Made by a program: the position numbers and the translations under genes
Shown here: piece after piece, positions 2,117-23,418 of the stretch
How positions within the stretch are numbered: the stretch's first letter is position 1
Layout: each line of letters starts with the position of its first letter
Notes under the pieces: generated by a model
The model's database searches: none
What the model was told of the DNA's origin: nothing
The model's input: the letters and a program-made list of their open reading frames with translations, nothing else
Source of the DNA: Thiofilum flexile DSM 14609
Lineage (GTDB): Bacteria > Pseudomonadota > Gammaproteobacteria > Thiotrichales > Thiotrichaceae
Reading direction: 5' to 3'
Length of the DNA: 64,000 nucleotides
Assembly: GCF_000380185.1 (NCBI RefSeq)
Contig: NZ_KB904758.1
Coordinates: 1-64,000 of the forward strand

Positions 2117-3049
2117 GTTTGAGTATCGCCCTGTTTGAGAAGGGATTAAGACGCCGGTGTTATTTCTGTAACCTCATCACTATTGGTTTGAGTATCGCCC
2201 TGTTTGAGAAGGGATTAAGACCTAACTATGGCTAAAGCCAGATAGGTTACTGCGTTTGAGTATCGCCCTGTTTGAGAAGGGATTAAGACGCCGGTGTTAT
2301 TTCTGTAACCTCATCACTATTGGTTTGAGTATCGCCCTGTTTGAGAAGGGATTAAGACCTAACTATGGCTAAAGCCAGATAGGTTACTGCGTTTGAGTAT
2401 CGCCCTGTTTGAGAAGGGATTAAGACAGTTAATTCTGTTGTGCCACGACATGCGTAACAGTTTGAGTATCGCCCTGTTTGAGAAGGGATTAAGACACTGA
2501 GCCTCTGGCGCACAGGTAACAGCATAAAGTTTGAGTATCGCCCTGTTTGAGAAGGGATTAAGACAGTCTGCTGATGCCTCTTTCTCTCAGCTCTGTAGTG
2601 TTTGAGTATCGCCCTGTTTGAGAAGGGATTAAGACGTCATCGACTTCCACCACACATAATTGTTTATTGTTTGAGTATCGCCCTGTTTGAGAAGGGATTA
2701 AGACTGAACACAGGTGCCGGTTGACCAGCGTCTATGAGTTTGAGTATCGCCCTGTTTGAGAAGGGATTAAGACTGAACACAGGTGCCGGTTGACCAGCGT
2801 CTATGAGTTTGAGTATCGCCCTGTTTGAGAAGGGATTAAGACAATAGCGCTAGGTCGCGGCCTGCCAGTCTATCAGTTTGAGTATCGCCCTGTTTGAGAA
2901 GGGATTAAGACCGTGCAAGCAATTGCCCTGCTGCCTCATTAATCGTTTGAGTATCGCCCTGTTTGAGAAGGGATTAAGACGTAGGTGTCCACTACGGCAT
3001 ACATTTGCGTTAGGTTTGAGTATCGCCCTGTTTGAGAAGGGATTAAGAC
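2117..3049 (+). CRISPR. CRISPR array, 14 repeats of 36 bp, 13 spacers
   Basis: Fourteen repeats that look identical by eye begin GTTTGAGTATCGCC and end GGGATTAAGAC. Repeat starts are 2117, 2186, 2254, 2323, 2391, 2460, 2529, 2600, 2669, 2738, 2807, 2876, 2945 and 3014. Spacers are 32-35 bp. Spacers 1 and 3 are the same, 2 and 4 are the same, and 9 and 10 are the same, so only ten are unique. No degenerate terminal repeat is seen at 3049. The array lies just upstream of a type III-B effector operon on the same strand. No cas6 is present here to process the transcript, so a trans-acting Cas6 is presumed. Protospacers were not searched. Confidence 0.98.
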
Positions 3050-3348: not shown

Positions 3349-4551
3349 ATGAAATTGACCTTCAAAGAGCCGCATATTATTAGGGCGACTTATCGCATTG
3401 TCACGCCGATGTTTATTGGTGATGCCGAACAAAAAGCATCTGGTATTTCTCCCGCCTCAGTCAAAGGGGCATTGCGTTTCTGGTGGCGAGCGCTGAACTG
3501 GGGACGAATTCGCTCGCAAATCCAATCAGATCGAGAGGCACTGCAGAAATTGCATGAGGAAGAGGGTACGCTTTTTGGGACTTCCGCAGATAATGGTAAG
3601 GCTGCACAATTTACCCTTCAAGTATTCTACTCTGGCAATAAAACCTCCGACCCTAAAAAGCCTACGAATGGTATTCAATACTTGCTGGGACAAGGGCTAT
3701 ATCATTTTGGCAATGGCTATCTTCGTCCTGTGTTGCAATCTGGTAGTACTTTTGAAATTCAGTTGCAGCTACAACCAAAAAGATATGGGAAATCACAAGA
3801 ACAATATCTACAGCAAAAGAGTCAGCTTATTGACGCCTTGTTGATATTTGGTTTGCTTGGAGGCTTGGGCAGCCGTGCCCGTAAAGGTTTCGGATCTGTC
3901 GCTATTCAATCTATGAGTGTCGATGGCTCTGGGATTAAGATTCCAAGCAATAGTGATGAGTTCCTGAAGTTGGTACAGGCACATCGAACTAGGGTTAGTT
4001 TGCCGCCATTCACGGCATTTTCAGCACTCACCCGAATTGATATGTCACTACAGGGGGATGGTGATCCTCTTGTTTTGCTCGATAAAGTAGGAGAACAACA
4101 GCAACTATATCGCTCATTTGGACGTGCCGACAATACTGGTAAGCATAAAGTTGCGGGTAAGCCTGCAGAACAAAATTTCAAAAAAGATCATGATCTGGTT
4201 GAAAAAATCATTACCTCTAAAAGCGCAACTAGCATCCCACAACGTTCCATATTTGGTTTGCCTCACAACTACTTTTTTTCCTCAACAAAGAAAAAGGCGG
4301 ACTTTGCACCCGCAATGTCCGAGTGTACACGGCGTACTTCTCCATTACTCATTCATGTACATCAATTTCCTGATGGTAAGACTGCCATTGTTCAATCATT
4401 ATTCCCTGCTGAATTTTTACCAGATAACACAATACTAGAGTTCAAGATGCAGCAGGGCAAAGCGAATATCCATTTTAACCAGCAAATGATTGATTGGCAG
4501 GTAATTCACAAATATATGGATCGCTTCAGTGAGAGGATGCAGACGTTATGA
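3349..4551 (+). CDS. cmr1: Type III-B CRISPR RAMP protein Cmr1
   Basis: A 400-residue RAMP protein, first gene of the effector operon. The N-terminus YRIVTPMFIGDAEQKA followed by SVKGALRFWWRAL is the Cmr1 signature. A glycine-rich loop (LLGGLGSRARKGFGSV, near residue 170) is the RAMP G-loop that binds RNA. In Cmr complexes Cmr1 sits at the 3' end of the crRNA and helps capture target RNA. It overlaps cmr2 by 4 bases (ATGA), which implies coupled translation. Confidence 0.95.
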   Translation: MKLTFKEPHIIRATYRIVTPMFIGDAEQKASGISPASVKGALRFWWRALNWGRIRSQIQSDREALQKLHEEEGTLFGTSADNGKAAQFTLQVFYSGNKTSDPKKPTNGIQYLLGQGLYHFGNGYLRPVLQSGSTFEIQLQLQPKRYGKSQEQYLQQKSQLIDALLIFGLLGGLGSRARKGFGSVAIQSMSVDGSGIKIPSNSDEFLKLVQAHRTRVSLPPFTAFSALTRIDMSLQGDGDPLVLLDKVGEQQQLYRSFGRADNTGKHKVAGKPAEQNFKKDHDLVEKIITSKSATSIPQRSIFGLPHNYFFSSTKKKADFAPAMSECTRRTSPLLIHVHQFPDGKTAIVQSLFPAEFLPDNTILEFKMQQGKANIHFNQQMIDWQVIHKYMDRFSERMQTL

Positions 4552-6500
4552 GCAACACCCCTCACTACTTCCATTTCACCTTGGGCCCCGTACAAGGCTT
4601 TGTGGCTCAGGCTCGCCGTACCCGTGATTTCTGGGCTGGCTCATTCATCCTTTCATGGCTGTCAGCTGTCGCTATCAAGGCCACACAAATTCAGGGTGGA
4701 GAAATCAAGTTTCCATTACCCGACGATGATTACATGTCTTGGCTAGAAGGAAAAAACCAAGGGAAAAAACCCATCCAAGGCAGTATTCCCAACCGATTCA
4801 AAGCGGAAATAAACTCCACCACTTTTAAACCAGAACAAGTGGTTAGTGCCGTACAAGAGGCATGGAAAGCACTGGCTGACACCGTATGGGAGCGCGATCT
4901 TGGTCATATCAGCCCTGCTAGTCAAACAGCAACAATATGGGATCGACAAATTTCAGCATTCTGGGATATGAGCTGGATAATAACTGATGACCCAAAAGAT
5001 AGCTCTGCACTAGATAAACGTAAAAACTGGCGCTCTTATTGTCCACCAAATGAGCCGGGCGTGAAGTGTTCTATAATGGATGGATGGCAAGAGTTGTCCG
5101 GTGCCAACAGCCCAAACCGTGAGGCAATGAACCATTTCTGGAGCTCCGTGCAGAATAATGGCCGTTACGGGATGAAAAGTGATCTGGCCAAAAACGAAGC
5201 CTTATGCGCAATGGCTTTTGTAAAACGGCGCTTCAGTCGTCACTTTGACAGACTGGATCATTCGATGGCACAAGGCTGGCGTTTGAAAGGCTGGAAAGTA
5301 CCTAGTGCTGTGCCTTCCGTGACTTATATGGCAGCGGTACACTGGCTGGAGCACGCCCTGAATAAAGCAGATGCCAATACACTGGCGAATTTCCATCAGG
5401 AAGCTGAGCGGCTGGTCGGTGGTGAGTATGGAGAGTGGGAAACTCGTATGCCCTGTCTTGAGTCATCGCCCAATGCGGGAATATTTAAACGCCTGCGCTC
5501 TCTGGATGGTGGGGTGTTTTTCGATTCCATACTGGAAAACAAAAATCACTTTGAAGATCAGGAGCAGGCTAAAAAAGTTCAGAGCACACTCGCAGCAGTA
5601 CGCAGAAGTGCCAATAATCTAGAGCCAGTATCACCTTTTTACGCCATTCTGCTGATGGATGGTGATTCGCTGGGCAAGCACATGAGTGATACCCATAAAC
5701 AGCCACTCATCACACAGGGACTGGCTAAATTCACCCTTGGTGTACCTGCTATAGTTTACAACCATAATGGTTTTCTTGTTTATGCAGGTGGTGATGACGT
5801 GCTGGCAATTCTACCGCTGGAAGATGCCATTCCGTGTGCAGTCGCGCTCCGCAAACATTATCTGTCTTGCTTTGATCAAGAAAAATTTCTAGCCACAATC
5901 TCTGGCGCTATTGAATTTGTCCATATCAAAACCCCGCTGACTGAAGTGTTGAAAGACTCTCATAAATTACTAGATGAGGTTGCTAAGGAGGGGCGTGGAC
6001 GTGATGCGCTGGCTATTCGGGTTTGGAAGCCAGGTGGCTTGCAGATTGAGTGGGCACAGCCGTGGGATATTGCCTTGGCTCCTGAACAGAACAATACCTA
6101 TCTGGAATTACTGGTCAAAACATTCCGTAATATCAAAGAAGATCAGGAGCAGTTCGCTAGTAAGTTCTTCTACAAGATTCGTGAGCGTTTTGAGTTGTTG
6201 AATCCATCCAAAAATACGCAGCAAGAAAGTGTTCTTGATGATTCTGATGCGCTCAGCTTAATGGCAATGGAATACCTGAACTCTGGCAAGTCAGATTTGA
6301 ACGGGATCAAAAATGCTCAGGAACGTATGGACAAAGCCAAAGATCGGGTCAGGCCACTATTGACGCAATGTCGTCCTGTCAAACGAAAGCTGCAGGATCA
6401 CAAAGCAGCACCGCGCGAACAATGGGACAAAAGCCAGCGGCTTGAAGTTGATGGTGCTCTCTTGGTTCGGTTTCTAGCTCGTAAAGGAGTTGAGCGATGA
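4548..6500 (+). CDS. cmr2: Cas10/Cmr2, cyclic oligoadenylate synthase, without HD domain
   Basis: A 650-residue large subunit of the type III-B complex. It opens directly with FHFTLGPVQGFVAQARRTRD and WAGSFILSWL, the block that in longer Cmr2 proteins follows an N-terminal HD nuclease domain of about 200 residues. That HD domain is absent. The cyclase palm is intact: LLMDGDSLGKHMSD near residue 370 and YAGGDDVLAI with GGDD at residues 414-417. Expected role: on target RNA binding it turns ATP into cyclic oligoadenylates that activate CARF effectors. DNA cleavage by this subunit is not expected. Overlaps both neighbours by 4 bases. Confidence 0.95.
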   Translation: MSNTPHYFHFTLGPVQGFVAQARRTRDFWAGSFILSWLSAVAIKATQIQGGEIKFPLPDDDYMSWLEGKNQGKKPIQGSIPNRFKAEINSTTFKPEQVVSAVQEAWKALADTVWERDLGHISPASQTATIWDRQISAFWDMSWIITDDPKDSSALDKRKNWRSYCPPNEPGVKCSIMDGWQELSGANSPNREAMNHFWSSVQNNGRYGMKSDLAKNEALCAMAFVKRRFSRHFDRLDHSMAQGWRLKGWKVPSAVPSVTYMAAVHWLEHALNKADANTLANFHQEAERLVGGEYGEWETRMPCLESSPNAGIFKRLRSLDGGVFFDSILENKNHFEDQEQAKKVQSTLAAVRRSANNLEPVSPFYAILLMDGDSLGKHMSDTHKQPLITQGLAKFTLGVPAIVYNHNGFLVYAGGDDVLAILPLEDAIPCAVALRKHYLSCFDQEKFLATISGAIEFVHIKTPLTEVLKDSHKLLDEVAKEGRGRDALAIRVWKPGGLQIEWAQPWDIALAPEQNNTYLELLVKTFRNIKEDQEQFASKFFYKIRERFELLNPSKNTQQESVLDDSDALSLMAMEYLNSGKSDLNGIKNAQERMDKAKDRVRPLLTQCRPVKRKLQDHKAAPREQWDKSQRLEVDGALLVRFLARKGVER

Positions 6501-7774
6501 GTAAAAATGGCAAAAACAAGAGTGGCAAACATTCAGTCCAATATAGAAAAGGTCAACAACCCAAGCAAAAAAGTGAAACGACCACTCAGGCTCCTCCTAT
6601 GCAGAATAAAACTCAAACTATAGATTTCAGCCAAGCTGTCAGACTGGTTTTTCAGGCAACAGATACCCTGTTTTTCCGTGAGTCTCGTCCAATGGAGTCG
6701 ATGGGTGAACTGCAAAGCGTATTCCCGCCTTCGGTTCGTACTTTAGCAGGTGCCGTGCGCTCATTGATTGGTGAGCAGCAAAATATTGATTGGCAGGCAT
6801 TTCATATAGCTAAAGGTAATGAGTTAATCGGCTATGGTGATGATCTTGGCAAGTTGAAATTTCAGGGGGCATGGCTGAGTTATAATGGTGAACGTTTATA
6901 CCCTGCACCCTTGTTGCTGATGCAAAAAGAAAACCAGCAAAAGGATCAGAAGGAGCCTGAACTACTACGCCTAACGCTGGCAAAAAAAGGCATCTGGTGC
7001 GATCTGGGGAAAAATGCCCGGCTACCAGAGCTACCAGCCAATGCGGCTGGTAGCAAACCATTGGAAAATACATGGCTAACTCAAGCAGGACTAACAGCGG
7101 TTTTACAGGGCAACGCACCAAAGATTGCAGATGTTAAAAAAGCATCTGATCTTTTTGAGCGCGAACCTAGAGTCGGCATTGCTCGTGACAACAGCAACCG
7201 CACGGTAGAGCCTAGCCTATTGTACCAAACTCGCCATATTCGTCTGCAAAGAGCCGTCTCGATTGAACTGGATGCTTCAGGCTTGCCACAGGATTTTCCG
7301 CACAGCCACATTATCCGCCTCGGTGGTGAAGGACGCACAGCGAGTCTTGAAGTTAAACCTGAAAACAAGACCTTTCCCAAAGCACCGCCAATTGGTAGCA
7401 ATCAGGGTTTGATACTGTATCTGCTGACCCCACTACAGCTTAAACAGCAGAGCAAAGAGTGGCAGCCGTTCCCCAACTTTGTCCGAGAAGAGCGTGAGGA
7501 CTTAACAGTCTGGACGGGTTCCCTCAATGGTATTGAACTGGAGCTTCATGGTGCTGTGACGGGAAAAGCTCAGCGTGAAGGGGGGTGGGATATGGCAAAG
7601 CATGAGCCTCGTGCTGTCACCAGCCTGATTCCGGCAGGGAGTGCGTTCTTTTGCAAAGTAAAAAACGGCGATACGGAAACGGAAACAGCTATCAAGAAAT
7701 TACATAACCAACAAATCGGCGAATTGAAAGCCTATGGCTACGGACACCTAGCCGTTGGCCTTTGGAATGATTAA
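6497..7774 (+). CDS. cmr3: Type III-B CRISPR RAMP protein Cmr3
   Basis: A 425-residue Cas5-like RAMP that in Cmr complexes holds the crRNA 5' tag next to Cmr2. Typical Cmr3 features are DTLFFRESRPMESMG near residue 53, FPPSVRTLAGAVRS near residue 73 and a C-terminal IGELKAYGYGHLAVG glycine loop. The first 35 or so residues are basic and low in complexity (KNGKNKSGKHSVQYRKGQQ) and look like a disordered tail not usual for the family. The start overlaps the cmr2 stop (ATGA). Confidence 0.93.
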   Translation: MSKNGKNKSGKHSVQYRKGQQPKQKSETTTQAPPMQNKTQTIDFSQAVRLVFQATDTLFFRESRPMESMGELQSVFPPSVRTLAGAVRSLIGEQQNIDWQAFHIAKGNELIGYGDDLGKLKFQGAWLSYNGERLYPAPLLLMQKENQQKDQKEPELLRLTLAKKGIWCDLGKNARLPELPANAAGSKPLENTWLTQAGLTAVLQGNAPKIADVKKASDLFEREPRVGIARDNSNRTVEPSLLYQTRHIRLQRAVSIELDASGLPQDFPHSHIIRLGGEGRTASLEVKPENKTFPKAPPIGSNQGLILYLLTPLQLKQQSKEWQPFPNFVREEREDLTVWTGSLNGIELELHGAVTGKAQREGGWDMAKHEPRAVTSLIPAGSAFFCKVKNGDTETETAIKKLHNQQIGELKAYGYGHLAVGLWND

Positions 7775-7786
7775 AGGAAAGCAATT

Positions 7787-8719
7787 ATGACACAAGCAAG
7801 TACCATTCTGGGTTTGTTGGCACAGACCTCTATCCATGCCGGTACAGGACAAAATACCGGCATTATTGATCTACCGATCCAACGGGAAGGGCATAATGGC
7901 TGGCCCTGCGTATTTGGGTCTGCCATGAAAGGCGCTTTACGTACTCGTGCAGAAACCCAATATGGCAAGGAAAATGCCAGTGTGATCTATGTATTTGGCC
8001 CAAGCCCAAGCCCAAGCCCAAATACCAATAATGCCAGCGAGCATGCTGGAGCTATTATGGTGAGTGATGCCCGTCTATTATTATTGCCTATTCGTTCGCT
8101 CACATCTCAGTTCAAATGGGTGACATGCCCAGATGCTCTGAAGCGTTACCAGCGTGATGCTGAACGTTTTGGTCTGACAGTCGGCTTACTCAGCAGTGTG
8201 AATGTAGAAGTAGAAGGCGATGAAGCCCTTGTTGCGACAAAAGAGGCTGATGGGGCATTGTTCCTTGAGGAGTATCGTTTCAATGCTAAATCACAGGATC
8301 TGAGCGTAGCCATTAAATCCATAGCCCAACTGATGCAGCGCGACGATGCAGAAGAGGTTTTGCAAAATCAGCTAGTGATTGTCAGTAATGATATGTTTGC
8401 CCATCTTTGCCAACACGCAACACCAGTGAATGCTCATATTGCCATCGAATCCGAAACTAAAACTGTTAAAGATGGAGCTCTTTGGTATGAGGAAACTTTA
8501 CCACCAGAAACCTTATTGTACGTTGGGCTATCAGCCAATCCAGTGAGAAAACCCAAGGGGGATAAAATCAAGGTTCCGTTACCTCAGGATGAATCCGGCA
8601 AGTGGGTGCTTGAGTCGATTACCAACTTGTTCAGGGACAGACCATGGTTACAGATTGGCGGTAATGAAACCGTCGGAATGGGCTGGTGCGCCGTCAAAGT
8701 GCTGCAAGGAGGACAATAA
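7787..8719 (+). CDS. cmr4: Type III-B CRISPR RAMP protein Cmr4 (target RNA nuclease)
   Basis: A 310-residue Cas7-type backbone subunit that cuts target RNA every six bases. The N-terminus LLAQTSIHAGTGQNTGIIDL followed by PIQREGHNGWP is diagnostic; Asp28 in GIID is at the catalytic aspartate position, so target RNA cleavage should be active. A hexanucleotide repeat at about 8000-8021 encodes PSPSPSP inside a loop. The ATG at 7787 is preceded by AAAGGAAAGC, a good ribosome site. The stop overlaps the cmr5 start by one base. Confidence 0.95.
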   Translation: MTQASTILGLLAQTSIHAGTGQNTGIIDLPIQREGHNGWPCVFGSAMKGALRTRAETQYGKENASVIYVFGPSPSPSPNTNNASEHAGAIMVSDARLLLLPIRSLTSQFKWVTCPDALKRYQRDAERFGLTVGLLSSVNVEVEGDEALVATKEADGALFLEEYRFNAKSQDLSVAIKSIAQLMQRDDAEEVLQNQLVIVSNDMFAHLCQHATPVNAHIAIESETKTVKDGALWYEETLPPETLLYVGLSANPVRKPKGDKIKVPLPQDESGKWVLESITNLFRDRPWLQIGGNETVGMGWCAVKVLQGGQ

Positions 8720-10337: not shown

Positions 10338-10431
10338 TCCATCTTGAAAGGATTATTTTGTCTGTGGGCGTATTTGCGTGAGTATCATGCGTGGACTACT
10401 TTTGGTAGTACCTCTTTTTTCGGTAACTGCT

Positions 10432-10755
10432 ATGTATGTTACTAATGTACGTGATTTACCCCCCTCCCTAGCTTTGCGGCAGGCAAAAGAGGCTCCCGTA
10501 CTCATACTCAAAGGCAATGAGCCGGACGCATTGCTTTTCCATCTAGAGAGATACCTGAGCGAGACCATCGCACAAATACGCCTGACACACGCTGCTAGTT
10601 TGTTTCGGGATGGTTTGATCTCACTTGGAAAAGCTGCTCGTATCAGTAGCTTGCCTAGGGCTGACTTTATTCTGCACCTAGATGAGCTTGGTATTGATGT
10701 CGTGCGCCATGATGAAACCGTAGAGCAATCGGTACAATCCGTGTACTGGCATTAG
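10432..10755 (+). pseudogene. Phd/UPF0175-like antitoxin, 3' end lost
   Basis: From the ATG at 10432 the product reads MYVTNVRDLPPSLALRQAKE and then APVLILKGNEPDALLF, like a Phd/YefM antitoxin N-terminus. It continues with LFRDGLISLGKAARISSLPRADFILHLDELGIDVV, a UPF0175 helix-turn-helix. Such proteins pair with DUF3368 PIN-like toxins. The frame then runs into unrelated residues (VEQSVQSVYWH) where a toxin fragment begins in another frame, so the natural C-terminus is probably replaced. A GTG at 10378 would add residues with no family match. Confidence 0.6.
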
Positions 10756-10869: not shown

Positions 10870-10929
10870 ATGGCGAAGGTGTTTATCAGTTTTTTGGACA
10901 ATCACAGGAAATTAAATGAAACTAATTAG
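10870..10929 (+). pseudogene. Short CARF-like N-terminal remnant or leader peptide
   Basis: A 19-codon frame reads MAKVFISFLDNHRKLNETN and stops inside the next gene's start region. MAKVFISFL resembles the first strand of TIGR02221/Csx1-like CARF proteins (compare MKLISFLGLG of the next gene). It has a better ribosome site (AAGGAG, 7 bases upstream) than the full gene. It could be a relic of a second CARF gene or a coupling leader. Confidence 0.3.
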
Positions 10930-12514
10930 CTTTCTTGGGCTTGGAGAAGCCAAACGTGACTCCAATAGCAAACCAACAGGTGAATATTTCTATCACAAAA
11001 CCACATACCGTTTTAATCAAGATCCACAAACAGATATTAGTAATACCTGCTATGTTGTTCGGGCAATTACACAAGGTTATACCATTAATGAAAAAACTAC
11101 CGGCCTACAGAGAGTAGATGAGGTTGTATTATTAGCAACCGAACAGGCAGAAAAAGCTCATATCGATAAAATTCTGGCTGAGTTTGAAGTTTATCAACTC
11201 CCACGACCCCATGTTGTGCGCGTTCCTTTTGGAGCAAATGCTGAACAACAGTGGGAACAATTTCATACAATTCTGGAGAATATTCCTCAAGGGAATGATA
11301 AAAAGGTCATTTTTGATATTACCCATGGCTTCCGCTCACAACCCTTCTTTGCAGCAGCGGTGATCAACTATGTTCGCTCAACTCGAAATGTAGAAAATAT
11401 ACCGGATATGCGTATTTTATACGGCGAGTATAACAGTGCAAAACAGGTCTCCGACATTTGGGATATGAGTACTTTCATCAACCTACTCGACTGGTCAAGT
11501 GCTCTTCAAAGCTTTATAAAAACAGGACATGGTGCTGCCCTAGCACAACTAGCCAAGCGCGAAAATGCAACCATTCAAAAAACTGGGCAAGGCGAACGTC
11601 CACGTATGCTGGCAAAACTGGCGGAATCTATCAAAGCATTTTCCGACAATATAGCCACTGTGCGCGTACTACAAATCATCACGGAATCCGCTAAAGGGCG
11701 TGGTAGTGCTGCCAATGTCCTACAAACTATTACCGATAGTGAAGCCGAAATCCGCCAGCACTTCATGCCACTCTATCCGGTGCTAGAGCAATTAAAAGAA
11801 AAACTGAAAGATATCCCAGCTCAATCTCTGTTCAGCTCTCAAGGGCATGTGTCCATGCTAACACTAGCAAAGCTATACATTGATTACGAACGCTATCCTG
11901 AGGCTGCTATTGTGGTGCGTGAAGGCTGGGTTTCTTTATATGCCAATACCAATCTTACAGATAAAGAACTACTAGATAAAAAAGGGCGTGATAAAACCGA
12001 GAAATGTTGGTATGAAAAAGAGGGGGAAGAAAACAACCCACAAGGATATGCAGATTTAATAGGATTGATACGCAATGATATTCAACATGGTGGTTTCAGA
12101 TCCTCCCCTAGTCCTGCTGATAAACTGATCCAGAACCTACAAGATTTAGTAGGAAAATTTGAAAGTAAAATACAAGATTACGAAACTACCAATTGCTTAG
12201 AAATACCTCCAACAAAATCATCCAAAACCTACTTCATCTCTCGTCATCCTGGTGCTGCTCTTTGGGCAGAATCTGAAGGGTTTCACATTGATCAGCTACT
12301 GGCACATTTTGATGTGGGAATTGTGCAATCTGGAGACACAGTATTGGGAACGCTACCGATCAATCTAGTAGCCGAGATGAATGCACGGGGTGGTCGTTAC
12401 TTTCACCTGACTCTAGAACTACCTGCCGAGGCACGGGGGCAAGAACTGAGTGCTGATGATATGCGCCGTTACGGAGCACGCCTAGAATGCTTTACAGCAC
12501 AAAAGCAGGTATAG
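10916..12514 (+). CDS. csx1: Csx1-type CARF-HEPN RNase fused to C-terminal Csx16 ring-nuclease-like domain
   Basis: A 532-residue type III ancillary protein in three parts. Residues 1 to about 200 are a CARF domain (MKLISFLGLG start, DITHGF at 134-139, the DxTHG motif), which should bind cyclic oligoadenylate. Residues 210 to about 415 are helical with IRNDIQHGG, giving R386-x4-H391, the HEPN ribonuclease motif. Residues 437-532 match Csx16 (VVA1548 family): FISRHPGAALWAESEG, then SGDTVLGTLPINLVAE and LPAEARGQELSADDMRRYGA. Csx16 is, to my knowledge, a predicted or recently tested cyclic-oligoadenylate ring nuclease. The frame is continuous with no stop or shift, so the fusion looks real. Expected effect: an RNase that carries its own off-switch. 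Family calls are strong; the self-limiting role is inference. Confidence 0.9.
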   Translation: MKLISFLGLGEAKRDSNSKPTGEYFYHKTTYRFNQDPQTDISNTCYVVRAITQGYTINEKTTGLQRVDEVVLLATEQAEKAHIDKILAEFEVYQLPRPHVVRVPFGANAEQQWEQFHTILENIPQGNDKKVIFDITHGFRSQPFFAAAVINYVRSTRNVENIPDMRILYGEYNSAKQVSDIWDMSTFINLLDWSSALQSFIKTGHGAALAQLAKRENATIQKTGQGERPRMLAKLAESIKAFSDNIATVRVLQIITESAKGRGSAANVLQTITDSEAEIRQHFMPLYPVLEQLKEKLKDIPAQSLFSSQGHVSMLTLAKLYIDYERYPEAAIVVREGWVSLYANTNLTDKELLDKKGRDKTEKCWYEKEGEENNPQGYADLIGLIRNDIQHGGFRSSPSPADKLIQNLQDLVGKFESKIQDYETTNCLEIPPTKSSKTYFISRHPGAALWAESEGFHIDQLLAHFDVGIVQSGDTVLGTLPINLVAEMNARGGRYFHLTLELPAEARGQELSADDMRRYGARLECFTAQKQV

Positions 12515-12535: not shown

Positions 12536-13711
12536 TTACGGCTCAGACCAATGTATTTGCTCTGGTTGCAAGTGTAAGCCACAACGTGTGGCAGGACGCT
12601 GACCATAGGTATACAGCAGGTAGGGTGTGGCTTTCCCTAATCCAAGTGCCTGTTTTAGAGTCTTATTGATTTGAGATTTACGCTCCTCAAACCAGTTCTT
12701 TCCTATTCCTTGCTGCAACCCTTTAGCAACAGTATGGTAGCTGCCACGACTCCCAAATAAATCACGATAAATTTGCAAAAACTGTTCTGCCAGCACCGGA
12801 TTTTCTTGATCCCTCCAATGCAGTGGCGGGCGCTGTTGTTGACAACGCTGTAACATCCAAACATAAAAAACTATCAATATCGGTGGCATGGGAACAAGTT
12901 CCCCTCCACACCATAACTCGCGCTCTACGGACTTGAACACGACCATGGGATTATTTAGCTGATGCTGGGCTGCCTTAATACTAGCACTAAAGCTACTATT
13001 CCCCTCCAGCAATGCCTGCGGCAGCCCCTCACGCAAACGCACGAATGGAATATCTGCCAGAATTACCTCCACTTGAGCTGCATCAAATGGCTTGCCATCC
13101 TGCCCTGTTAACCATTGAGAGTAAGGGGGTGGGTAGAAAAAATCTGGCAAAAAGAAATAGGCATCATCTACCAATACATGCGTCAATCGATCCTGTAAGC
13201 GCCCAAATAGAGACAACGCATAACCAATATAGAAAGTCATGGTACGGCGTCCGCCTGAAAGTGAAATCACTAGTTGAGTGTCTGGAAATGCCGTCAGGCG
13301 ACGCACTACTTGGCTGATAAAATCAGCAGCATGGGTGTTATCCGAACGAGTACGAATATCATCCAATTCATATCCATCATCATCCGTGATCAAGTGTATA
13401 TGTTCAGGTGTGAAAGCTGGCAGGGGTAATTGATAATCATGGCAGAGACGACTGAGCCAACCCTCGCCCCCGTAAGCCTGATCTAACAGACGCTCCACAC
13501 CGATCTTCCCATGCCCAGTGGTAATGACATGCACCTCTGTTGCTTGCCAACTAGGTGTTTCATGCATTAGAGCATATAGTGTTTCGGTCACCACCTGTGG
13601 CGAACGGGCAGCCACTGCCAGCAGGATGCGTCGTGACCAAACATGCTCTACCTGTTGCTGTGCTTCAGTAGCTAGCGGTATAGCAGACAAAGGGGGATGA
13701 CTAGATAGCAT
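12536..13711 (-). CDS. NE0113-family CARF protein (Csm6-like ring nuclease family)
   Basis: A 391-residue protein on the strand opposite to the cmr operon, convergent with the csx1-csx16 gene. The CARF domain matches the TIGR02584/NE0113 family: RILLAVAARSPQVVTETLYA (from residue 28), EVHVITTGHGK, DIRTRSDNTHAADFI and ISLSGGRRTMTFY (149-161), then ALSLFGRLQDRLTHVLV. The C-terminal half is helical, winged-helix-like, and I find no R-x4-H HEPN motif. It may therefore sense or degrade cyclic oligoadenylate rather than cut RNA. The ATG at 13711, behind AGGA, is preferred to a TTG at 13783. Confidence 0.88.
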   Translation of the reverse strand: MLSSHPPLSAIPLATEAQQQVEHVWSRRILLAVAARSPQVVTETLYALMHETPSWQATEVHVITTGHGKIGVERLLDQAYGGEGWLSRLCHDYQLPLPAFTPEHIHLITDDDGYELDDIRTRSDNTHAADFISQVVRRLTAFPDTQLVISLSGGRRTMTFYIGYALSLFGRLQDRLTHVLVDDAYFFLPDFFYPPPYSQWLTGQDGKPFDAAQVEVILADIPFVRLREGLPQALLEGNSSFSASIKAAQHQLNNPMVVFKSVERELWCGGELVPMPPILIVFYVWMLQRCQQQRPPLHWRDQENPVLAEQFLQIYRDLFGSRGSYHTVAKGLQQGIGKNWFEERKSQINKTLKQALGLGKATPYLLYTYGQRPATRCGLHLQPEQIHWSEP

Positions 13712-13855
13712 AGGAATCCTGACTTGGGAGTAGGTATTTCTGAAAGATAGAGCGTATTTTGTAACTCTAAAATCATACACCAACCTATCTAGACTGGCTG
13801 AATTTTACTAGCTGGCATACACTGGTCGCTTCATTATAAAGCAAAAAGAGAAAAT

Positions 13856-17831: not shown

Positions 17832-18917
17832 TTATGCTGTAGCGCCTTCACCACCTCCGTTAGCACCAGAATGAACTGCAGGTCGTCCTCCTGCATCACC
17901 ATTGAAGCGGTTAAAGTTAGCGAAGGAAGTATCAAATAAACTACCCACCTCATACAGTTTTACGGTTTCTTTATCCCCTCTTTTGGAGATCGTGCCATCT
18001 AACTTTTCAATCGCACCGCCACCTTGAGCACCTACACCCACATCACCATTTCTCACTTTATTATCACCATCGGCGGTTTGTCCCCATAAGCCGTGTGGCA
18101 TTACACCATCCTTAGCAACATCTTTACTCTTAGCAGTAAAATCTAAATGCCCACCTTTAGAGGTAATGGTAACGGTATACTCTTCATCCTTGAGCGTTAT
18201 AACACCGCCTTTCTTAGTGACGCTACCACCACCATCGGTAGGATAGGTTCCATCCTGCTTCATAACTGTACCATTTAAAGTGAGTTGGCCTGAGGCATTT
18301 ACCTTCACGCGATCTCCACCGATGACCGCACCGATTTCACCCATTACGGTAGTACCGCTGTTACCCACGAACTTAGCGTTCATTTGGAAGCCAGCATCAC
18401 TGATAATGTTATAGTAAGTGTTTGGTTTACCTTGTACATCGTATTTACCACCATCAGCACCGATAAAATGTGGGTCTCCCCATGCACCACCGTTATTAGT
18501 AGTTCCTACTGGTGTAGTCGGTCTGGGGTTAGCGGTTCCCGGAGTCGTGGTTCCCGGAGTTGTAGTTCCCGGAGTCGTAGTTCCCGGAGTTGTAGTTCCT
18601 GGAGTGGTAGTTCCTGGAGTGGTAGTTCCCGGAGTTGTAGTCCCCGGAGTGGTAGTCCCCGGAGTTGTAGTTCCTGGTATTACTCCACCTCCTTGTCCGC
18701 CGGTATTAGTGTTAGCCATCATTTGTTGTAATAACAACATAATCATTTGCATGAAGTTATTATTACCTTGCAGACCAGCCCCTCCCCCTAGGTTGAATAT
18801 ATTGGTAAAATTCACACCTGTATTACATCCATTCAAACCTCCTGTGTTTAGTGTAGGAGAGGGAGAAATTCCGCGTGGGGGTGTAGTAGTAATGTTATTT
18901 TGTGTAGTGTTTAGCAT
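17832..18917 (-). CDS. VWD-like domain protein with PGTTT repeats (paralogue A)
   Basis: 361 residues. The opening MLNTTQNNITT is shared by all four paralogues. A hydrophobic MQMIMLLLQQMMA helix near residue 57 follows, then nine PGTTT units and a C-terminal domain beginning GGAWGDPHFIGADGGKYDVQ. The GDPHF, YDVQG and later PHGLWGQTADGD motifs resemble von Willebrand factor type D domains, which bind calcium and assemble in extracellular matrices. There is no classical signal peptide and almost no cysteine, so export, if any, is by an unknown path. The ATG at 18917 has AGAGG upstream. Function unknown; a surface or matrix role is a guess. Confidence 0.8.
   Translation of the reverse strand: MLNTTQNNITTTPPRGISPSPTLNTGGLNGCNTGVNFTNIFNLGGGAGLQGNNNFMQMIMLLLQQMMANTNTGGQGGGVIPGTTTPGTTTPGTTTPGTTTPGTTTPGTTTPGTTTPGTTTPGTTTPGTANPRPTTPVGTTNNGGAWGDPHFIGADGGKYDVQGKPNTYYNIISDAGFQMNAKFVGNSGTTVMGEIGAVIGGDRVKVNASGQLTLNGTVMKQDGTYPTDGGGSVTKKGGVITLKDEEYTVTITSKGGHLDFTAKSKDVAKDGVMPHGLWGQTADGDNKVRNGDVGVGAQGGGAIEKLDGTISKRGDKETVKLYEVGSLFDTSFANFNRFNGDAGGRPAVHSGANGGGEGATA
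18541..18675. repeat. Nine tandem 15-bp units encoding PGTTT
   Basis: The unit GGAGTNGTAGTTCCC (plus strand) is repeated nine times with few changes inside gene A. Unit length is a multiple of three, so gains or losses change linker length without breaking the frame. Confidence 0.95.
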
Positions 18918-19136
18918 TTTACTGACCTCTTTGAATTTTAAAATAATTTTGATTAATCATAAGTAGCAATAAACCAATATCAAACCACGGGCTAGATCAC
19001 TTTATTCGTTAGTAAAACGTTTGGGGTTGTCGCTTGTTGATAAGTTTAGTTATTTGTTGAATAAGATATTCTTATAATTGCCTTATAAAATGAAGTAGAA
19101 TTGAGATAGCCGAGAAGCTTTAGCAGGCAAAAGGTC
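18918..19136 (-). promoter_or_regulatory. Conserved upstream block, copy A
   Basis: About 215 bases upstream of gene A are shared with the three sister genes. Shared parts on the plus strand are CCAATATCAAACCACGG near the start codon, the inverted repeat ATAAGATATTCTTAT about 150 bases out, and a distal block of the type GAAGTAGAATTGAGATAG. Probably the promoter and 5' leader. Confidence 0.6.
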
Positions 19137-19178
19137 TTACTCTACCCTTAATATCAAAGAAAAATATTAAGAAGGTAT

Positions 19179-19280
19179 AAGTAATCGGGTATTTCTGGAG
19201 CAGTCTTGGTGGCAGGGATGCCGCATCGTAGCGTCCAGAGAGGTATTCACAGCGGCAGCGGAGGAAATACTCGATTACTT
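19179..19280. repeat. Element with 17-bp inverted ends (possible structured RNA or MITE relic)
   Basis: AAGTAATCGGGTATTTC (19179-19195) pairs with GAAATACTCGATTACTT (19264-19280), with one G-T pair. The 68 bases inside hold GATGC-C-GCATC and CTGGA/TCCAG pairings and are more GC-rich than the flanks. It lies between paralogues A and B and is not repeated between the others. No coding frame. The rest of 18918-19481 holds only upstream block A and terminator B. Confidence 0.45.
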
Positions 19281-19432
19281 TGGCTCAAGTACTTATAAAA
19301 GTAAGATCAGCTTAATTAATTCGGTGAGGGGAGGTAATGACAGGCTCATTGAACCCAGAGATATTGAACGACAGCAATGCTTGGTTTGGCTGATGCAGCG
19401 ATAAGCAATGGAATCTTATCCTCTAAACGAAC

Positions 19433-19456
19433 GAAGCCGCTTGAAAAAGCGGCTTC
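19433..19456 (-). terminator. Hairpin after VWD-like gene B
   Basis: Perfect 10-bp arms GAAGCCGCTT/AAGCGGCTTC around GAAA, 25 bases past the stop of gene B. Related hairpins follow genes C and D. Confidence 0.7.
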
Positions 19457-19481
19457 GAGCATCACCAAGTGATGAGTAAAC

Positions 19482-20579
19482 TTAGGCAGTAGCACCCTCA
19501 CCGCCACCATCGGCACCGGAATGAACTACTGACTCACCTCCAGTATCACCACTGAAGCGGTTAAAGTTAGTAAACGAGGTATCAAATAAGTTACCTACTT
19601 CATAAAGTGTCACGGTGTCTTTATCACCTCTTGCGGAGAGGGTACCATCTAACTTTTCAATGGCTCCACCACCTTGAGCACCGACGCCTACGTCACCGCT
19701 TCTCGCTTTACCATCACCATCAGCAGTTTGTCCCCATAAACCGTGCGGCATTATACCATCCTTAGCCACATCACTGCTTTTAGCATTAAAATCTAGATAA
19801 CCAGCTTGAGCGGTAACTGTAACGGTGTACTCCTCATCTTTTATCGTAATCTGACCACCTCGCTTAGTAATACTACCACCACCATCGGTAGGATAGGTGC
19901 CATCTTTTAACACATTACCATTTAGGGTGAGCTTACCAGATACATCAATCTTTATTTGATCAGCCCCCATAACCGCGCCGATTTCACCCATTACGGTAGC
20001 GCCCGCGCCCCATGACACGAACTTAGCATTCATTTGGAAGCCATCATCACTAAGAATGTTATAGTAAGTTCCTGCCTTACCTTGCACATCGTATCGACCG
20101 CCATCTGCACCAATGAAGTGTGGATCACCCCATGCACCACCATTATTACCGGTTGCCACTGGTGTAGGAGTAGGTCTCGGTGTTGTCGTGGGTACGGGTG
20201 TTGGCACTGGTGTCGGTACCGGTGTTGGCACGGGTGTCGGTACCGGTGTTGGCACTGGTGTTGGCACTGGCGTCGGCGTAGCTGGTGTCGGCGTAGCTGG
20301 TGTCGGTGTAGCTGGTGTCGGCGTAGCTGGTGTCGGCGTAGCTGGCGTCGGTGTTTGTCCGCCGAGTTGACCACCGAAACAATTAGGATCTGCAGCTAAT
20401 TGTTGTAACAGTAACATAATAATTTGTGCGAAATTATTATTACCTAAACCACCAGCAGGTCTAAATACATCGGTAAAGTTTAAACCTGTAGTACTTCCGC
20501 CCAAAAATCCTGTGGTTAAAGATGATGGTGGCTTAGTAGGGGTAGTAGTAGTAACGTTAGACTGATTAATATTTAGCAT
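19482..20579 (-). CDS. VWD-like domain protein with PTPAT/PVPT repeats (paralogue B)
   Basis: 365 residues from the ATG at 20579 (AGAGG upstream); a longer reading to 20642 adds 21 residues not seen in sister proteins. The layout is the same as paralogue A: MLNINQSNVTTTT start, NNFAQIIMLLLQQLA helix, a repeat linker of five PTPAT units then about seven PVPT units, and the VWD-like domain (GGAWGDPHFIGADGGRYDVQ, PHGLWGQTADGD). The C-terminal tail GADGGGEGATA is nearly the same as in A. Sequence between paralogues is closest in the VWD-like domain and most different in the linker. Confidence 0.8.
   Translation of the reverse strand: MLNINQSNVTTTTPTKPPSSLTTGFLGGSTTGLNFTDVFRPAGGLGNNNFAQIIMLLLQQLAADPNCFGGQLGGQTPTPATPTPATPTPATPTPATPTPATPTPVPTPVPTPVPTPVPTPVPTPVPTPVPTTTPRPTPTPVATGNNGGAWGDPHFIGADGGRYDVQGKAGTYYNILSDDGFQMNAKFVSWGAGATVMGEIGAVMGADQIKIDVSGKLTLNGNVLKDGTYPTDGGGSITKRGGQITIKDEEYTVTVTAQAGYLDFNAKSSDVAKDGIMPHGLWGQTADGDGKARSGDVGVGAQGGGAIEKLDGTLSARGDKDTVTLYEVGNLFDTSFTNFNRFSGDTGGESVVHSGADGGGEGATA
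20170..20358. repeat. Tandem 12- and 15-bp repeats encoding Pro/Thr linker
   Basis: Units of the type GGTGTCGGCGTAGCT and GGTGTTGGCACT (plus strand) make up the linker of gene B. Spurious long frames appear on both strands because of the periodic sequence. Confidence 0.9.
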
Positions 20580-20790
20580 ATTATTGGCCTCTCTAAATTT
20601 TAGATAATTTTGATTGATTGAGTGACAACGAACCAATATCAAACTACGGTTTAGATCACTTTACTATTTAGTAAAACGCTTGGGGTTGTAGTTACTATGA
20701 TAAATTTGGCTATTGATTGAATAAGATATTCTTATAATTATACTGTAGAGTGAAGTAGGATTAAGATAGTCGGGAAACTTTAGCGGGTAA
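20580..20790 (-). promoter_or_regulatory. Conserved upstream block, copy B
   Basis: The same order of conserved pieces as copy A: CCAATATCAAACTACGG, ATAAGATATTCTTAT and GAAGTAGGATTAAGATAGTC. The remaining 20791-20935 shows nothing I recognise. Confidence 0.6.
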
Positions 20791-20938
20791 AAGGTAAACG
20801 CCAATGAGTCTCCAGCAAAAAATATCAGGTAAGGCTAAATAATATGCAATAGAACTGACTATTACCGGAACGCTCGTAAAGCTCCAGTCTTTAAATAAGG
20901 GGTATCAGCTAATAGAACATGACTGCCAAAAAGCCAGA

Positions 20939-20957
20939 AGCCGCTTAAAAAGCGGCT
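20939..20957 (-). terminator. Hairpin after VWD-like gene C
   Basis: Arms AGCCGCT/AGCGGCT around TAAAA, 29 bases past the stop of gene C. Confidence 0.6.
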
Positions 20958-20985
20958 CCACGCTTGTTATCAATAGTTATAAAGC

Positions 20986-22023
20986 TTAGGCCATGTCACG
21001 TTCTCCACTACCATTAGCCCCAGAATGAACTACTGTATCCCCGCCGGTATCGCCAGTGAAGCGGTTAAAGTTAGTAAAGGCGGTATCAAATAAACTACCT
21101 ACCTCATAAAGTTGTACCGTTTGTTTGTCGCCACGTTTAGAGATAGTGCCATCTAGCTTTTCCAGCACACCGCCGCCTTGAGCACCTGTACCTGTATCAC
21201 CTTTTCTCACCTTTTTATCACCATCAGCAGTTTGTCCCCAGATACCGTGCGGCATTACTCCATCAGCAGCAACGTCTTTACTCTTGACTCTGAAATCTAA
21301 ATAGTTACCCCCCGCGCTACTTTTAGAGGTAATAGTCACGGTATATTCTTCATCCTTGAGGGTGATGACCTTACCCTTTTTAGTCACACTGCCCCCATTT
21401 TCGGTAGGATAAGTGCCATCCTTCATCACATTACCGTTCAACGTCAGTTGTCCATTTTTATCAACTTGTACCTTATCCGTCCCCATGACAGCGCCCATTT
21501 CACCCATTATCGTAGTTCCGGCATTTTTAAAGCCCACGAACTTAGCATTCATCTGGAAGCCATCATCGCTAAGAATGTTATAGTAATTTCCTGCCTTACC
21601 TTGCACATCATAACGACCACCATCGGCACCAATGAAATGAGGATCTCCCCACCCACCTGCGTTATTGGCCGTTGGTATAGTCATACCTGGTTTTGGAGAG
21701 GGTGTAGGTGCTACGGGTGTAGGTGCGGCTGGGGTCGGTGTAGGTGCTGTCGGAGTGGGGGTCGGTGTAGGTGCTGCCGGAGTTGGTGTAGGCGCTACTC
21801 CCCCACCGAGTTGTCCACCTACACAATTAGGATTAGCCGACAATTGCTGTAATAACGACATAATAATTTGTGTGAAATTATTATTCCCCGGCACAGCCCC
21901 CCCCGGTCTAAATACATCTGTAAAATTTAACCCAGCTAGGCCAGCACTATTCAAACTCCCCATAGTTAAAGCGGAAGAAGAGGACGAGGGTGTAGTAATA
22001 TTAGACTGATTAATATTTAGCAT
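20986..22023 (-). CDS. VWD-like domain protein (paralogue C)
   Basis: 345 residues with the ATG at 22023 and GGGA upstream. It has the shared start MLNINQSNITT, the NNFTQIIMSLLQQLSA helix, and a linker rich in APTPTP units rather than exact repeats. The C-terminal VWD-like domain has GGWGDPHFIGADGGRYDVQG, then PHGIWGQTADGD. The tail GANGSGERDMA differs from A and B. C and D share domain changes (VLEKLDGT, GIWGQ) that set them apart from A and B (AIEKLDGT, GLWGQ), which suggests two rounds of duplication. Confidence 0.78.
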   Translation of the reverse strand: MLNINQSNITTPSSSSSALTMGSLNSAGLAGLNFTDVFRPGGAVPGNNNFTQIIMSLLQQLSANPNCVGGQLGGGVAPTPTPAAPTPTPTPTAPTPTPAAPTPVAPTPSPKPGMTIPTANNAGGWGDPHFIGADGGRYDVQGKAGNYYNILSDDGFQMNAKFVGFKNAGTTIMGEMGAVMGTDKVQVDKNGQLTLNGNVMKDGTYPTENGGSVTKKGKVITLKDEEYTVTITSKSSAGGNYLDFRVKSKDVAADGVMPHGIWGQTADGDKKVRKGDTGTGAQGGGVLEKLDGTISKRGDKQTVQLYEVGSLFDTAFTNFNRFTGDTGGDTVVHSGANGSGERDMA

Positions 22024-22240
22024 ATTATTGATCCCACTGAATTTAAAATAATTTCGTTAATAATGAGTGGCAGAAAATCAATATCAAACTACAAGCTAAC
22101 ACTCTATTACTTAGCAAAATACTGGGAGTTGTAGTTTTAATAAAGTTAATTTTTTATTAAATAGAATATTCTTATAAGGATATTATGAAGTGAAGTAGGA
22201 TCAAGATAGTCGGGAAAATTCAGTAGGTAAAAGGTGTAAT
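22024..22240 (-). promoter_or_regulatory. Conserved upstream block, copy C
   Basis: It keeps CAATATCAAACTAC, GAATATTCTTATAA and GAAGTAGGATCAAGATAGTC, with more changes than copies A and B. 22241-22375 holds nothing recognised. Confidence 0.5.
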
Positions 22241-22379
22241 TCTACCGCCCATCCCAATAAAAAATAGGAAGCTAACGCTTTAATATCCATTTAGCGATGA
22301 GATTAATTAATATGCTAGGTATCGAACGGAGGGATTGGCTCAATCTGACCAACGATGAGGGCTATGGCTAACAGGAGTA

Positions 22380-22401
22380 GAGCCGCTTAGGAAAGCGACT
22401 C
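22380..22401 (-). terminator. Decayed hairpin after VWD-like gene D
   Basis: Arms GAGCCGCTT and AAGCGACTC pair except for one C-A mismatch, at the same relative place as the hairpins of genes B and C. Confidence 0.45.
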
Positions 22402-22419
22402 CACGATTACCGACCGTAT

Positions 22420-23418
22420 TTAAACGCTGTCAGCACCACCATTCGCGCTAGAGTGAACAGCTACATCACCGCCACTATTGCCACCGAAGCGGTTAAAGTT
22501 AGTAAAGGAGGTATCAAATAAGCTGCCTACCTCGTAAAGCTTCACGGTTTCTTTATCGCCACGTTTGGAGATAGTGCCATCTAATTTTTCCAGCACACCA
22601 CCGCCTTGAGCACCTGCGCCGGTATCACCAGTTCTCACTTTCTTATCACCATCAGCGGTTTGTCCCCAGATACCGTGCGGCATGATACCGTCTTTAGCAA
22701 CATCTTTACTGGATACCCTGAAATCCAAATATTTAGTCACATTGGTCGCTTTTGCCGTAATAGTAGCGGTGTACTCTTCTTCTTTTAGGGTAACAACCTT
22801 ACCCTTTTTAGTGACGCTACCACCATTACTAGTCGCATAGGTGCCATCCTGCATCACTTTACCATTTATGGTTAACTGCCCCTCTTTATCGAATTGCACT
22901 TTATCCATACCCATCACCGCGCCAATTTCACCCATAATGGTGGCTCCCGCGTTTCTATGGCTAGTAAACTTAGCATTCATTTGGAAGCCAGCATCACTCA
23001 GCAGGTTATAGTAAGTATTGACTTTACCCTGCACATCATAGCGACCACCATCGGCACCAATAAAATGTGGATCACCCCAACCACCTGCATTAACTCCGGT
23101 TCCTACCGGTGTTCCTGGTCTAGGTGTTGGTGTGGGTGTTGCCGGAGTTGGAGTAGCAGGTGTAGGAGTTGGAGCGGCAGGTGTTGGTGTAGGCGCAACT
23201 CCACCACCACTAATCTGTCCACGATTAGCTGCTAATTGCTGTAACAGCATCATAATCATTTGTAAGAGATTATTACCCCCTTGCAAACCACTACTACTTC
23301 CGTTAAAACCGTTAAGATTCAAACCAGTACTCGTTCCTCCCCAACGCCCTGTGCTTGGAGTAGGAGTTGGTGATATTCCACGATGTGTAGTAATGTTAGA
23401 CTGTGTAGTATTTAGCAT
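22420..23418 (-). CDS. VWD-like domain protein (paralogue D)
   Basis: 332 residues with the ATG at 23418. It has the MLNTTQSNITT start, LLQMIMMLLQQLAA helix, a short linker (APTPTPAAPTPTP, TPATPTP) and the VWD-like domain GGWGDPHFIGADGGRYDVQG. The end is shorter (ANGGADSV) and lacks the GEGATA tail of A and B. It is the most upstream member of the array and runs divergently from ygfZ. It shares the C-type domain changes. Function unknown. Confidence 0.78.
   Translation of the reverse strand: MLNTTQSNITTHRGISPTPTPSTGRWGGTSTGLNLNGFNGSSSGLQGGNNLLQMIMMLLQQLAANRGQISGGGVAPTPTPAAPTPTPATPTPATPTPTPRPGTPVGTGVNAGGWGDPHFIGADGGRYDVQGKVNTYYNLLSDAGFQMNAKFTSHRNAGATIMGEIGAVMGMDKVQFDKEGQLTINGKVMQDGTYATSNGGSVTKKGKVVTLKEEEYTATITAKATNVTKYLDFRVSSKDVAKDGIMPHGIWGQTADGDKKVRTGDTGAGAQGGGVLEKLDGTISKRGDKETVKLYEVGSLFDTSFTNFNRFGGNSGGDVAVHSSANGGADSV

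What the first reader, a model, noticed from the sequence alone, without database searches (positions are those of the whole stretch)
10916..12514. Natural fusion of a CARF-HEPN RNase to a Csx16 domain: a self-limiting type III effector
One unbroken frame joins a DxTHG CARF domain, a HEPN domain with R386-x4-H391 and, at 437-532, a full Csx16 domain (SRHPGA, GDTVLGTLPINLVAE, RGQELSADD). Csx16 is usually a separate small protein and belongs to the families proposed as ring nucleases. An RNase joined to its own cyclic-oligoadenylate degrader would be a built-in timer. A Csx1-Crn2 fusion is known; I am not aware of a described Csx1-Csx16 fusion.
Basis: partly seen in the sequence, partly recalled or inferred. 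Interest (0 to 1): 0.88.

Follow-up and report, generated by a model that had tools for sequence, protein, structure and literature searches.

The report
RNA-cutting effector fused to its off-switch
One bacterial immune protein joins an RNA-shredding enzyme, switched on by a phage alarm molecule, to a domain of the family known to destroy that alarm; the design was already catalogued and exists in other bacteria, but here it seems to have arisen separately from two neighbouring genes.

Summary
Window 10916-12514 (+) is one 532-aa frame: CARF (DxTHG), HEPN (R386-x4-H391) and a complete Csx16 domain (439-530), directly downstream of a type III-B cmr1-6 operon with a CRISPR array. Conserved residues of both halves are kept, and the Csx16 part has no start codon of its own.

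The claim of novelty is only partly right. PADLOC-DB (2023) already holds a model named CARF_HEPN_CSX16, matched over the whole length (745 bits). I found six more fused proteins in a sample of 369 gammaproteobacterial genomes. Csx1-Crn2 is a characterised, crystallised analogue and the best whole-chain structural match.

New here: trees of both halves reject a common origin with the other fusions (p-AU 1e-7 and 2e-5). The nearest relatives are unfused Thiothrix genes; in one Thiothrix the two lie 9 bp apart. So the fusion most likely arose on its own from operon neighbours. The same genome has a second Csx1 and a single Csx16, so the fused domain would probably also quench the other effector in trans.

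Most likely mechanism: a cA4-activated RNase with a built-in cA4-cleaving off-switch at fixed 1:1 dose. Activity is inferred, not shown.

The parts
10916..12514 (+). Fused gene CARF-HEPN-Csx16, 532 aa
10916..11473 (+). CARF domain (residues 1-186), cyclic-oligoadenylate sensor
   Evidence: TIGR02221 82.9 bits; structural matches to CARF domains over residues 1-186
11315..11329 (+). DITHG motif (residues 134-138); H137 aligns with the His of the DLTHG motif of Marinitoga Csx1-Crn2
   Evidence: TIGR02549 E 5e-11; alignment
11474..12190 (+). Helical middle part and HEPN RNase domain (residues 187-425)
   Evidence: VIA-align Z 17.0, 225 residues, rmsd 3.5 to CARF-truncated Csx1-Crn2 8y7f
12071..12088 (+). 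HEPN catalytic motif R386-NDIQ-H391
   Evidence: R386 and H391 conserved in over 90% of homologues; aligns with the Marinitoga motif
12191..12229 (+). Low-confidence linker (residues 426-438) without stop, start codon or ribosome-binding site
   Evidence: pLDDT below 50 at 425-435; start and SD scan
12230..12505 (+). Csx16 domain (residues 439-530), predicted cA4 ring nuclease
   Evidence: PF09652 E 3e-30, TIGR02620 E 6e-26; all 18 invariant residues of 31 sequences kept; AF2 pLDDT 93.8 alone
3349..4551 (+). cmr1
   Evidence: TIGR01894
4548..6500 (+). cas10/cmr2: GGDD cyclase motif present, no HD domain match; only Cas10 of the genome
   Evidence: TIGR02577, PF22335, PF12469; own-genome search
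6497..7774 (+). cmr3
   Evidence: TIGR01888, PF09700
7787..8719 (+). cmr4
   Evidence: TIGR02580
8719..9144 (+). cmr5 (likely ATG start at 8719; listed frame begins at 8686)
   Evidence: TIGR01881, PF09701
9141..10337 (+). cmr6
   Evidence: TIGR01898
10378..10755 (+). UPF0175-like small gene between cmr6 and the fused gene
   Evidence: PF03683 E 2e-10
12536..13783 (-). NE0113-family CARF protein (CARF5; NCBIfam names the family a ring nuclease), divergent neighbour
   Evidence: TIGR02584 E 1e-63, PDLC01904
2117..3049 (.). CRISPR array, 14 repeats of 36 nt, 13 spacers; strand not determined

Best explanation
A type III-B CRISPR ancillary effector of the Csx1 kind with a ring nuclease of the Csx16 family fused at its C-terminus. 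Proposed working: target RNA binding makes Cas10 produce cA4 (inferred); the CARF dimer binds cA4 and activates the HEPN RNase (inferred from family and conserved residues); the Csx16 domains of the same dimer compete for cA4 and cleave it, so RNase activity is limited in time and starts only above a cA4 threshold (inferred from free-standing Csx16 and from Csx1-Crn2). Because the genome has a second, unfused Csx1 and no other Csx16, the fused domain would also lower cA4 for that effector. The fusion is a separate joining of neighbouring csx1 and csx16 genes in the Thiothrix lineage.
For: Both halves pass curated cut-offs and keep the catalytic or invariant residues. Full-length match to the CARF_HEPN_CSX16 model, 744.6 bits. 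Best whole-chain structural and PDB sequence matches are the Csx1-Crn2 fusion entries 8y6z, 8y7g and 8y75. Csx16 degrades cA4, not cA6, and Csx1-Crn2 is cA4-activated and self-limiting (PMC12409355, PMC7293037). Sits after a complete cmr operon with a GGDD Cas10 and a CRISPR array. Non-synonymous differences are few against saturated synonymous ones in the Csx16 part (pN 0.10-0.17, pS 0.72-0.92). Separate origin: AU tests reject one clade of fused proteins in both halves; nearest relatives are unfused, and in Thiothrix sp. UBA5583 the two genes lie 9 bp apart. Second Csx1 next to cas6 on another contig; single Csx16.
Against: No activity was measured. No Csx16 structure or catalytic residue is given in the held papers that I read, so an inactive or merely binding domain cannot be excluded. 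The CARF match to the Pfam Csx1_CARF model is below its cut-off. The two trees depend on short alignments and some long branches; only 7 fused sequences were used. Two CARF5-family proteins in the genome could also degrade cA4, which would make the fused domain partly redundant.
Confidence: 0.78

Rival explanations
1. The Csx16 domain binds cA4 without cutting it: a sponge or dimerisation module that sets the activation threshold rather than a timer.
For: No catalytic residue of Csx16 is known here; sponge action was discussed for Csx15 in PMC12409355. Csx1 itself can sometimes cleave cA4.
Against: All residues invariant in free-standing Csx16 are kept, and a free-standing member cleaves cA4.
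Confidence: 0.12
2. The main role of the fused ring nuclease is system-wide: it clears cA4 for the second, unfused Csx1 and other CARF proteins, and fusion to this Csx1 only fixes its dose.
For: Second Csx1 with cas6 on contig C27, single Cas10 and single Csx16 in the genome.
Against: Not exclusive of self-limitation; the two CARF5 proteins may share the job.
Confidence: 0.35
3. The join is an assembly or sequencing artefact of two adjacent genes.
For: Relatives carry the genes separately, in one case 9 bp apart; no second genome of this genus was available.
Against: No start codon or ribosome-binding site remains before the Csx16 part and no frameshift is needed; the same architecture occurs in six other genomes; the PADLOC model scores this protein well above the others (744 against at most 553 bits), as if a near-identical fused sequence was among its seeds (inference).
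Confidence: 0.04
4. The fusion is ancestral, shared with the other gammaproteobacterial fusions, and Thiothrix relatives split it again.
For: Same domain order and same place behind cmr6 in the other fused loci.
Against: AU tests reject one clade of fused proteins, p 1.4e-7 (CARF-HEPN) and 2.3e-5 (Csx16); the window is nested among unfused Thiothrix Csx1 proteins, so several splits would be needed.
Confidence: 0.12

Closest known systems
PADLOC-DB CARF2--CARF_HEPN_CSX16 (PDLC01842)
   Same: Same three domains in the same order; the model matches residues 1-531 with 744.6 bits.
   Different: Nothing in architecture. The other fused proteins found here are only 30-36% identical in the CARF-HEPN half and 41-54% in the Csx16 half and belong to a separate origin or origins.
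Csx1-Crn2 of Marinitoga piezophila (PMC7293037; PDB 8Y6Z, 8Y7G, 8Y75)
   Same: Type III-B, CARF-HEPN RNase with a C-terminal ring nuclease, 563 against 532 aa, same HEPN motif; best whole-chain match.
   Different: The ring nuclease is Crn2 (DUF1874), not Csx16. Marinitoga activity is measured; here it is inferred.
Free-standing Csx16 (PF09652/TIGR02620), cA4 ring nuclease (PMC12409355)
   Same: 76-82% identical to most Thiothrix stand-alone proteins (down to about 54% in the wider order); all invariant residues kept.
   Different: Has lost its own start codon and is tied to the effector.
Crn4 fused to Csm6-2 or TIR-SAVED (PMC12830947)
   Same: Ring nuclease at the C-terminus of a type III effector.
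   Different: Other ring nuclease and effector families; cA6 or other signals.

Membership tests
CARF_HEPN_CSX16 architecture (PADLOC PDLC01842) | Full-length match over CARF, HEPN and Csx16 | tested here: met
   744.6 bits, residues 1-531, profile 1-477 of 478
Csx1 (CARF-HEPN RNase of type III systems) | CARF domain with DxTHG motif | tested here: met
   TIGR02221 and TIGR02549 above cut-offs; Pfam Csx1_CARF only 15 bits against 24.7
Csx1 (CARF-HEPN RNase of type III systems) | HEPN R-x4-6-H catalytic pair | tested here: met
   R386/H391, conserved in over 90% of rows, aligned with the Marinitoga R/H motif
Csx1 (CARF-HEPN RNase of type III systems) | RNase activity switched on by cA4 | not testable with these tools
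   needs assay
Csx16 ring nuclease | Family profile above curated cut-off over full length | tested here: met
   PF09652 104.6 bits against 25; TIGR02620 90.5 against 46.35
Csx16 ring nuclease | Residues invariant across the family | tested here: met
   18 of 18 invariant columns kept; one conservative departure (M for V) among columns at 90% or more
Csx16 ring nuclease | Cleavage of cA4 | not testable with these tools
   shown for a free-standing member in PMC12409355
Csx16 ring nuclease | Small separate protein (survey limit 250 aa) | tested here: not met
   part of a 532-aa frame without own start; the limit in PMC12409355 is a search setting, not a functional criterion
Csx1-Crn2 | Related CARF-HEPN half | tested here: met
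   profile hit to 8y75 E 8e-27
Csx1-Crn2 | C-terminal Crn2 (DUF1874) domain | tested here: not met
   Pfam scan up to E 1 gives Csx16 and no DUF1874 at 439-527
Type III-B CRISPR-Cas | cmr1-6 with cyclase motif in Cas10 and a CRISPR array | tested here: met

The most novel reading that the evidence does not exclude
Effector-ring nuclease fusion is a repeated, selected outcome: Csx1 proteins of one subfamily have independently captured Csx16 at least twice (here from the neighbouring gene, with unfused, adjacent and fused states all surviving in one bacterial family), besides Crn2 and, by PADLOC model names, Csx20 and Csx3; and the fused off-switch also governs a second effector in the same cell.
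Probability: 0.55. Interest if true: 0.55.

Novelty: new member of a known kind. Interest (0 to 1): 0.42.

Why it matters
It gives a second ring-nuclease family in the self-limiting effector design already shown for Csx1-Crn2, so one can ask whether a fixed 1:1 dose of weapon and off-switch is the general principle. Thiothrix and its kin offer a natural series (genes apart, genes 9 bp apart, genes fused) for testing what fusion changes. The 2025 ring-nuclease survey excluded proteins over 250 aa, so fused Csx16 was not counted there; in my sample of Gammaproteobacteria 7 of 24 Csx16 matches are such fusions.

Tried and rejected
Chance match or frame artefact: rejected on domain scores and the absence of an internal start. 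'Uncatalogued fusion': rejected by the PADLOC model. Inherited fusion shared with other families: rejected by AU tests. L002 was first listed as a 1-531 match, but its frames show two genes. L038 looked like a reversed Csx16-Csx1 frame; it is a truncated csx16 relic with recombinase or transposase-like sequence upstream. Phage or plasmid origin: no fused relative in phage or plasmid collections, only separate Csx16 or Csx1. Fold search with the Csx16 domain alone gave only weak Rossmann-like matches (best Z 6.3 to resolvases; Crn1-type ring nuclease 7z55 Z 5.2, rmsd 3.0, 93 residues), which does not decide anything. Sequence search found no solved Csx16 structure. The paper that classified CARF proteins in 2020 (gkaa635) and the Csx1-Crn2 structure paper are not held, so whether the former discusses this fusion in its text was not checked.

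Full report
Observation. The frame 10916-12514 (+) encodes 532 aa without interruption. Pfam and NCBIfam place a CARF domain with DxTHG at the N-terminus and a complete Csx16 domain at 439-530, all but the Pfam CARF models above curated cut-offs. The HEPN pair R386/H391 aligns with the motif of the crystallised Csx1-Crn2 protein of Marinitoga, whose R397 and H402 were named as active-site residues in PMC7293037; H137 aligns with the His of its DLTHG motif.

Not two overlapping genes. Between codons 395 and 466 there is no in-frame ATG, GTG or TTG, and the only Shine-Dalgarno-like words nearby are a short AGGA at 12151 and a GGAG inside the Csx16 domain. The Csx16 part can therefore not be made separately by ordinary initiation. 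The predicted structure shows a low-confidence linker at 425-435 between two confident blocks; the Csx16 domain alone is predicted with pLDDT 93.8.

Context. Directly upstream lie cmr1-cmr6 with a Cas10 that has the GGDD motif and no HD domain match, and a CRISPR array with 14 repeats. It is the only Cas10 of the genome. A small UPF0175-like gene separates cmr6 from the fused gene, and an NE0113-type CARF protein lies downstream on the other strand. On another contig of the same genome are cas6, a second CARF-HEPN Csx1 (399 aa) and a second NE0113-type protein, beside Ssp genes. The fused Csx16 is the only one in the genome. If it cleaves cA4, it would therefore also damp the second Csx1; this step is inference.

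Is it known? PADLOC-DB 2.0.0 (2023) has a model named CARF2--CARF_HEPN_CSX16, matched over residues 1-531 with 744.6 bits; the library also names CARF_HEPN_CSX20, CARF_HEPN_CSX3 and CARF8 CARF_CSX16_TM. In an even sample of 369 gammaproteobacterial genomes I found 24 Csx16 matches; seven are CARF-HEPN-Csx16 fusions (the window and L032-L037, four other family codes), one is a membrane-segment fusion (G109), one is a relic, and the rest are separate genes. Among the 12 held papers that mention Csx16, I read the passages on Csx16 or fusion in the three where such fusions were most likely to be discussed and found no description of a Csx1-Csx16 fusion; most subscription papers are not held. The 2025 survey that proved Csx16 to be a cA4-specific ring nuclease limited ring nucleases to 250 aa and so left fusions out.

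Origin. Among 63 genomes of the same order, all 20 other good Csx16 matches lie in frames of 99-155 aa; a 21st is a 29-column fragment. The window's CARF-HEPN half is 72-73% identical to unfused Csx1 of two Thiothrix genomes, about 65% to that of UBA5583 and only 30-36% to the other fused proteins; its Csx16 half is 76-82% identical to most Thiothrix separate proteins and 41-54% to fused ones. Maximum-likelihood trees place the window inside the unfused Thiothrix clade for the Csx1 half (100/100, nearest to UBA5583 with 89/99) and among the unfused Thiotrichaceae for Csx16. Forcing all seven fused proteins together is rejected with p-AU 1.4e-7 and 2.3e-5. In Thiothrix sp. UBA5583 the two genes are separate with 9 bp between them; in T. 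caldifontis they lie about 5 kb apart. The simplest history is a fusion of operon neighbours, independent of the fusions in other families. The trees hold few fused sequences, so the number of events is a lower bound.

Constraint. Against separate Thiothrix genes, the Csx16 part has pN 0.10-0.17 with pS 0.72-0.92; the CARF-HEPN part has pN 0.17-0.22 with pS 0.68-0.83. No column conserved at 90% or more has changed in Csx16 apart from one M for V. The fused domain shows no sign of decay, though a young fusion would not yet show one.

Mechanism. The closest analogue, Csx1-Crn2, has been shown to be activated by cA4 only, to destroy cA4 in its C-terminal domain, and to cut RNA more when the ring nuclease is inactivated. 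Its structures are the best sequence and fold matches for the window protein. Csx16 fully degrades cA4 and not cA6. From this I infer a cA4-activated RNase whose own chain removes the signal. Shown here: anatomy, conservation, context, separate origin. Inferred: cA4 as activator, cleavage by the fused domain, and the effect on the second Csx1.

Verdict. A true, well-formed protein of a design already catalogued, with an interesting independent origin. Interest 0.42.

Noticed in passing
window 2117-3049: CRISPR array with 14 identical 36-nt repeats; 13 spacers of which three sequences occur twice (spacers 1-2 repeated as 3-4; spacer 9 repeated as 10), i.e. block duplications inside the array.
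   Followed up: partly
window 17832-23418 (-): Four tandem paralogues (332-386 aa) with Thr/Pro-rich linkers built of different short repeat units and a shared C-terminal part beginning GWGDPHFIGADGG, weakly similar to the VWD domain (E 9e-5 to 0.008); about 60-130 nt of upstream DNA is shared too.
   Followed up: partly
window 10378-10755 (+): UPF0175-like small gene between cmr6 and the fused effector, where some Thiothrix relatives have an HVO_A0114-type HTH gene.
   Followed up: no
window 12536-13783 (-): NE0113-type CARF protein, a family that NCBI names a ring nuclease; a second copy lies on contig C27 of the same genome.
   Followed up: partly
L061 (G000 contig C27) 7144-10612: cas6, second Csx1 and second NE0113 protein without Cas10 or array within the 10.7 kb read, next to SspC and SspA/DndA genes on the other strand.
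   Followed up: partly
L058 1607-2491 (-): Another Csx16 fusion: a 294-aa protein with likely N-terminal membrane segments and a C-terminal Csx16, directly behind cmr6; no CARF-HEPN match outside the Csx16 part.
   Followed up: partly
L002 8001-9497: The unfused Csx1 of Thiothrix sp. UBA5583 carries about 75-90 extra C-terminal residues without a Pfam match, directly before separate csx16.
   Followed up: no
L052-L056: Csx16 genes on viral contigs (37-55% identical), possibly anti-CRISPR ring nucleases.
   Followed up: no
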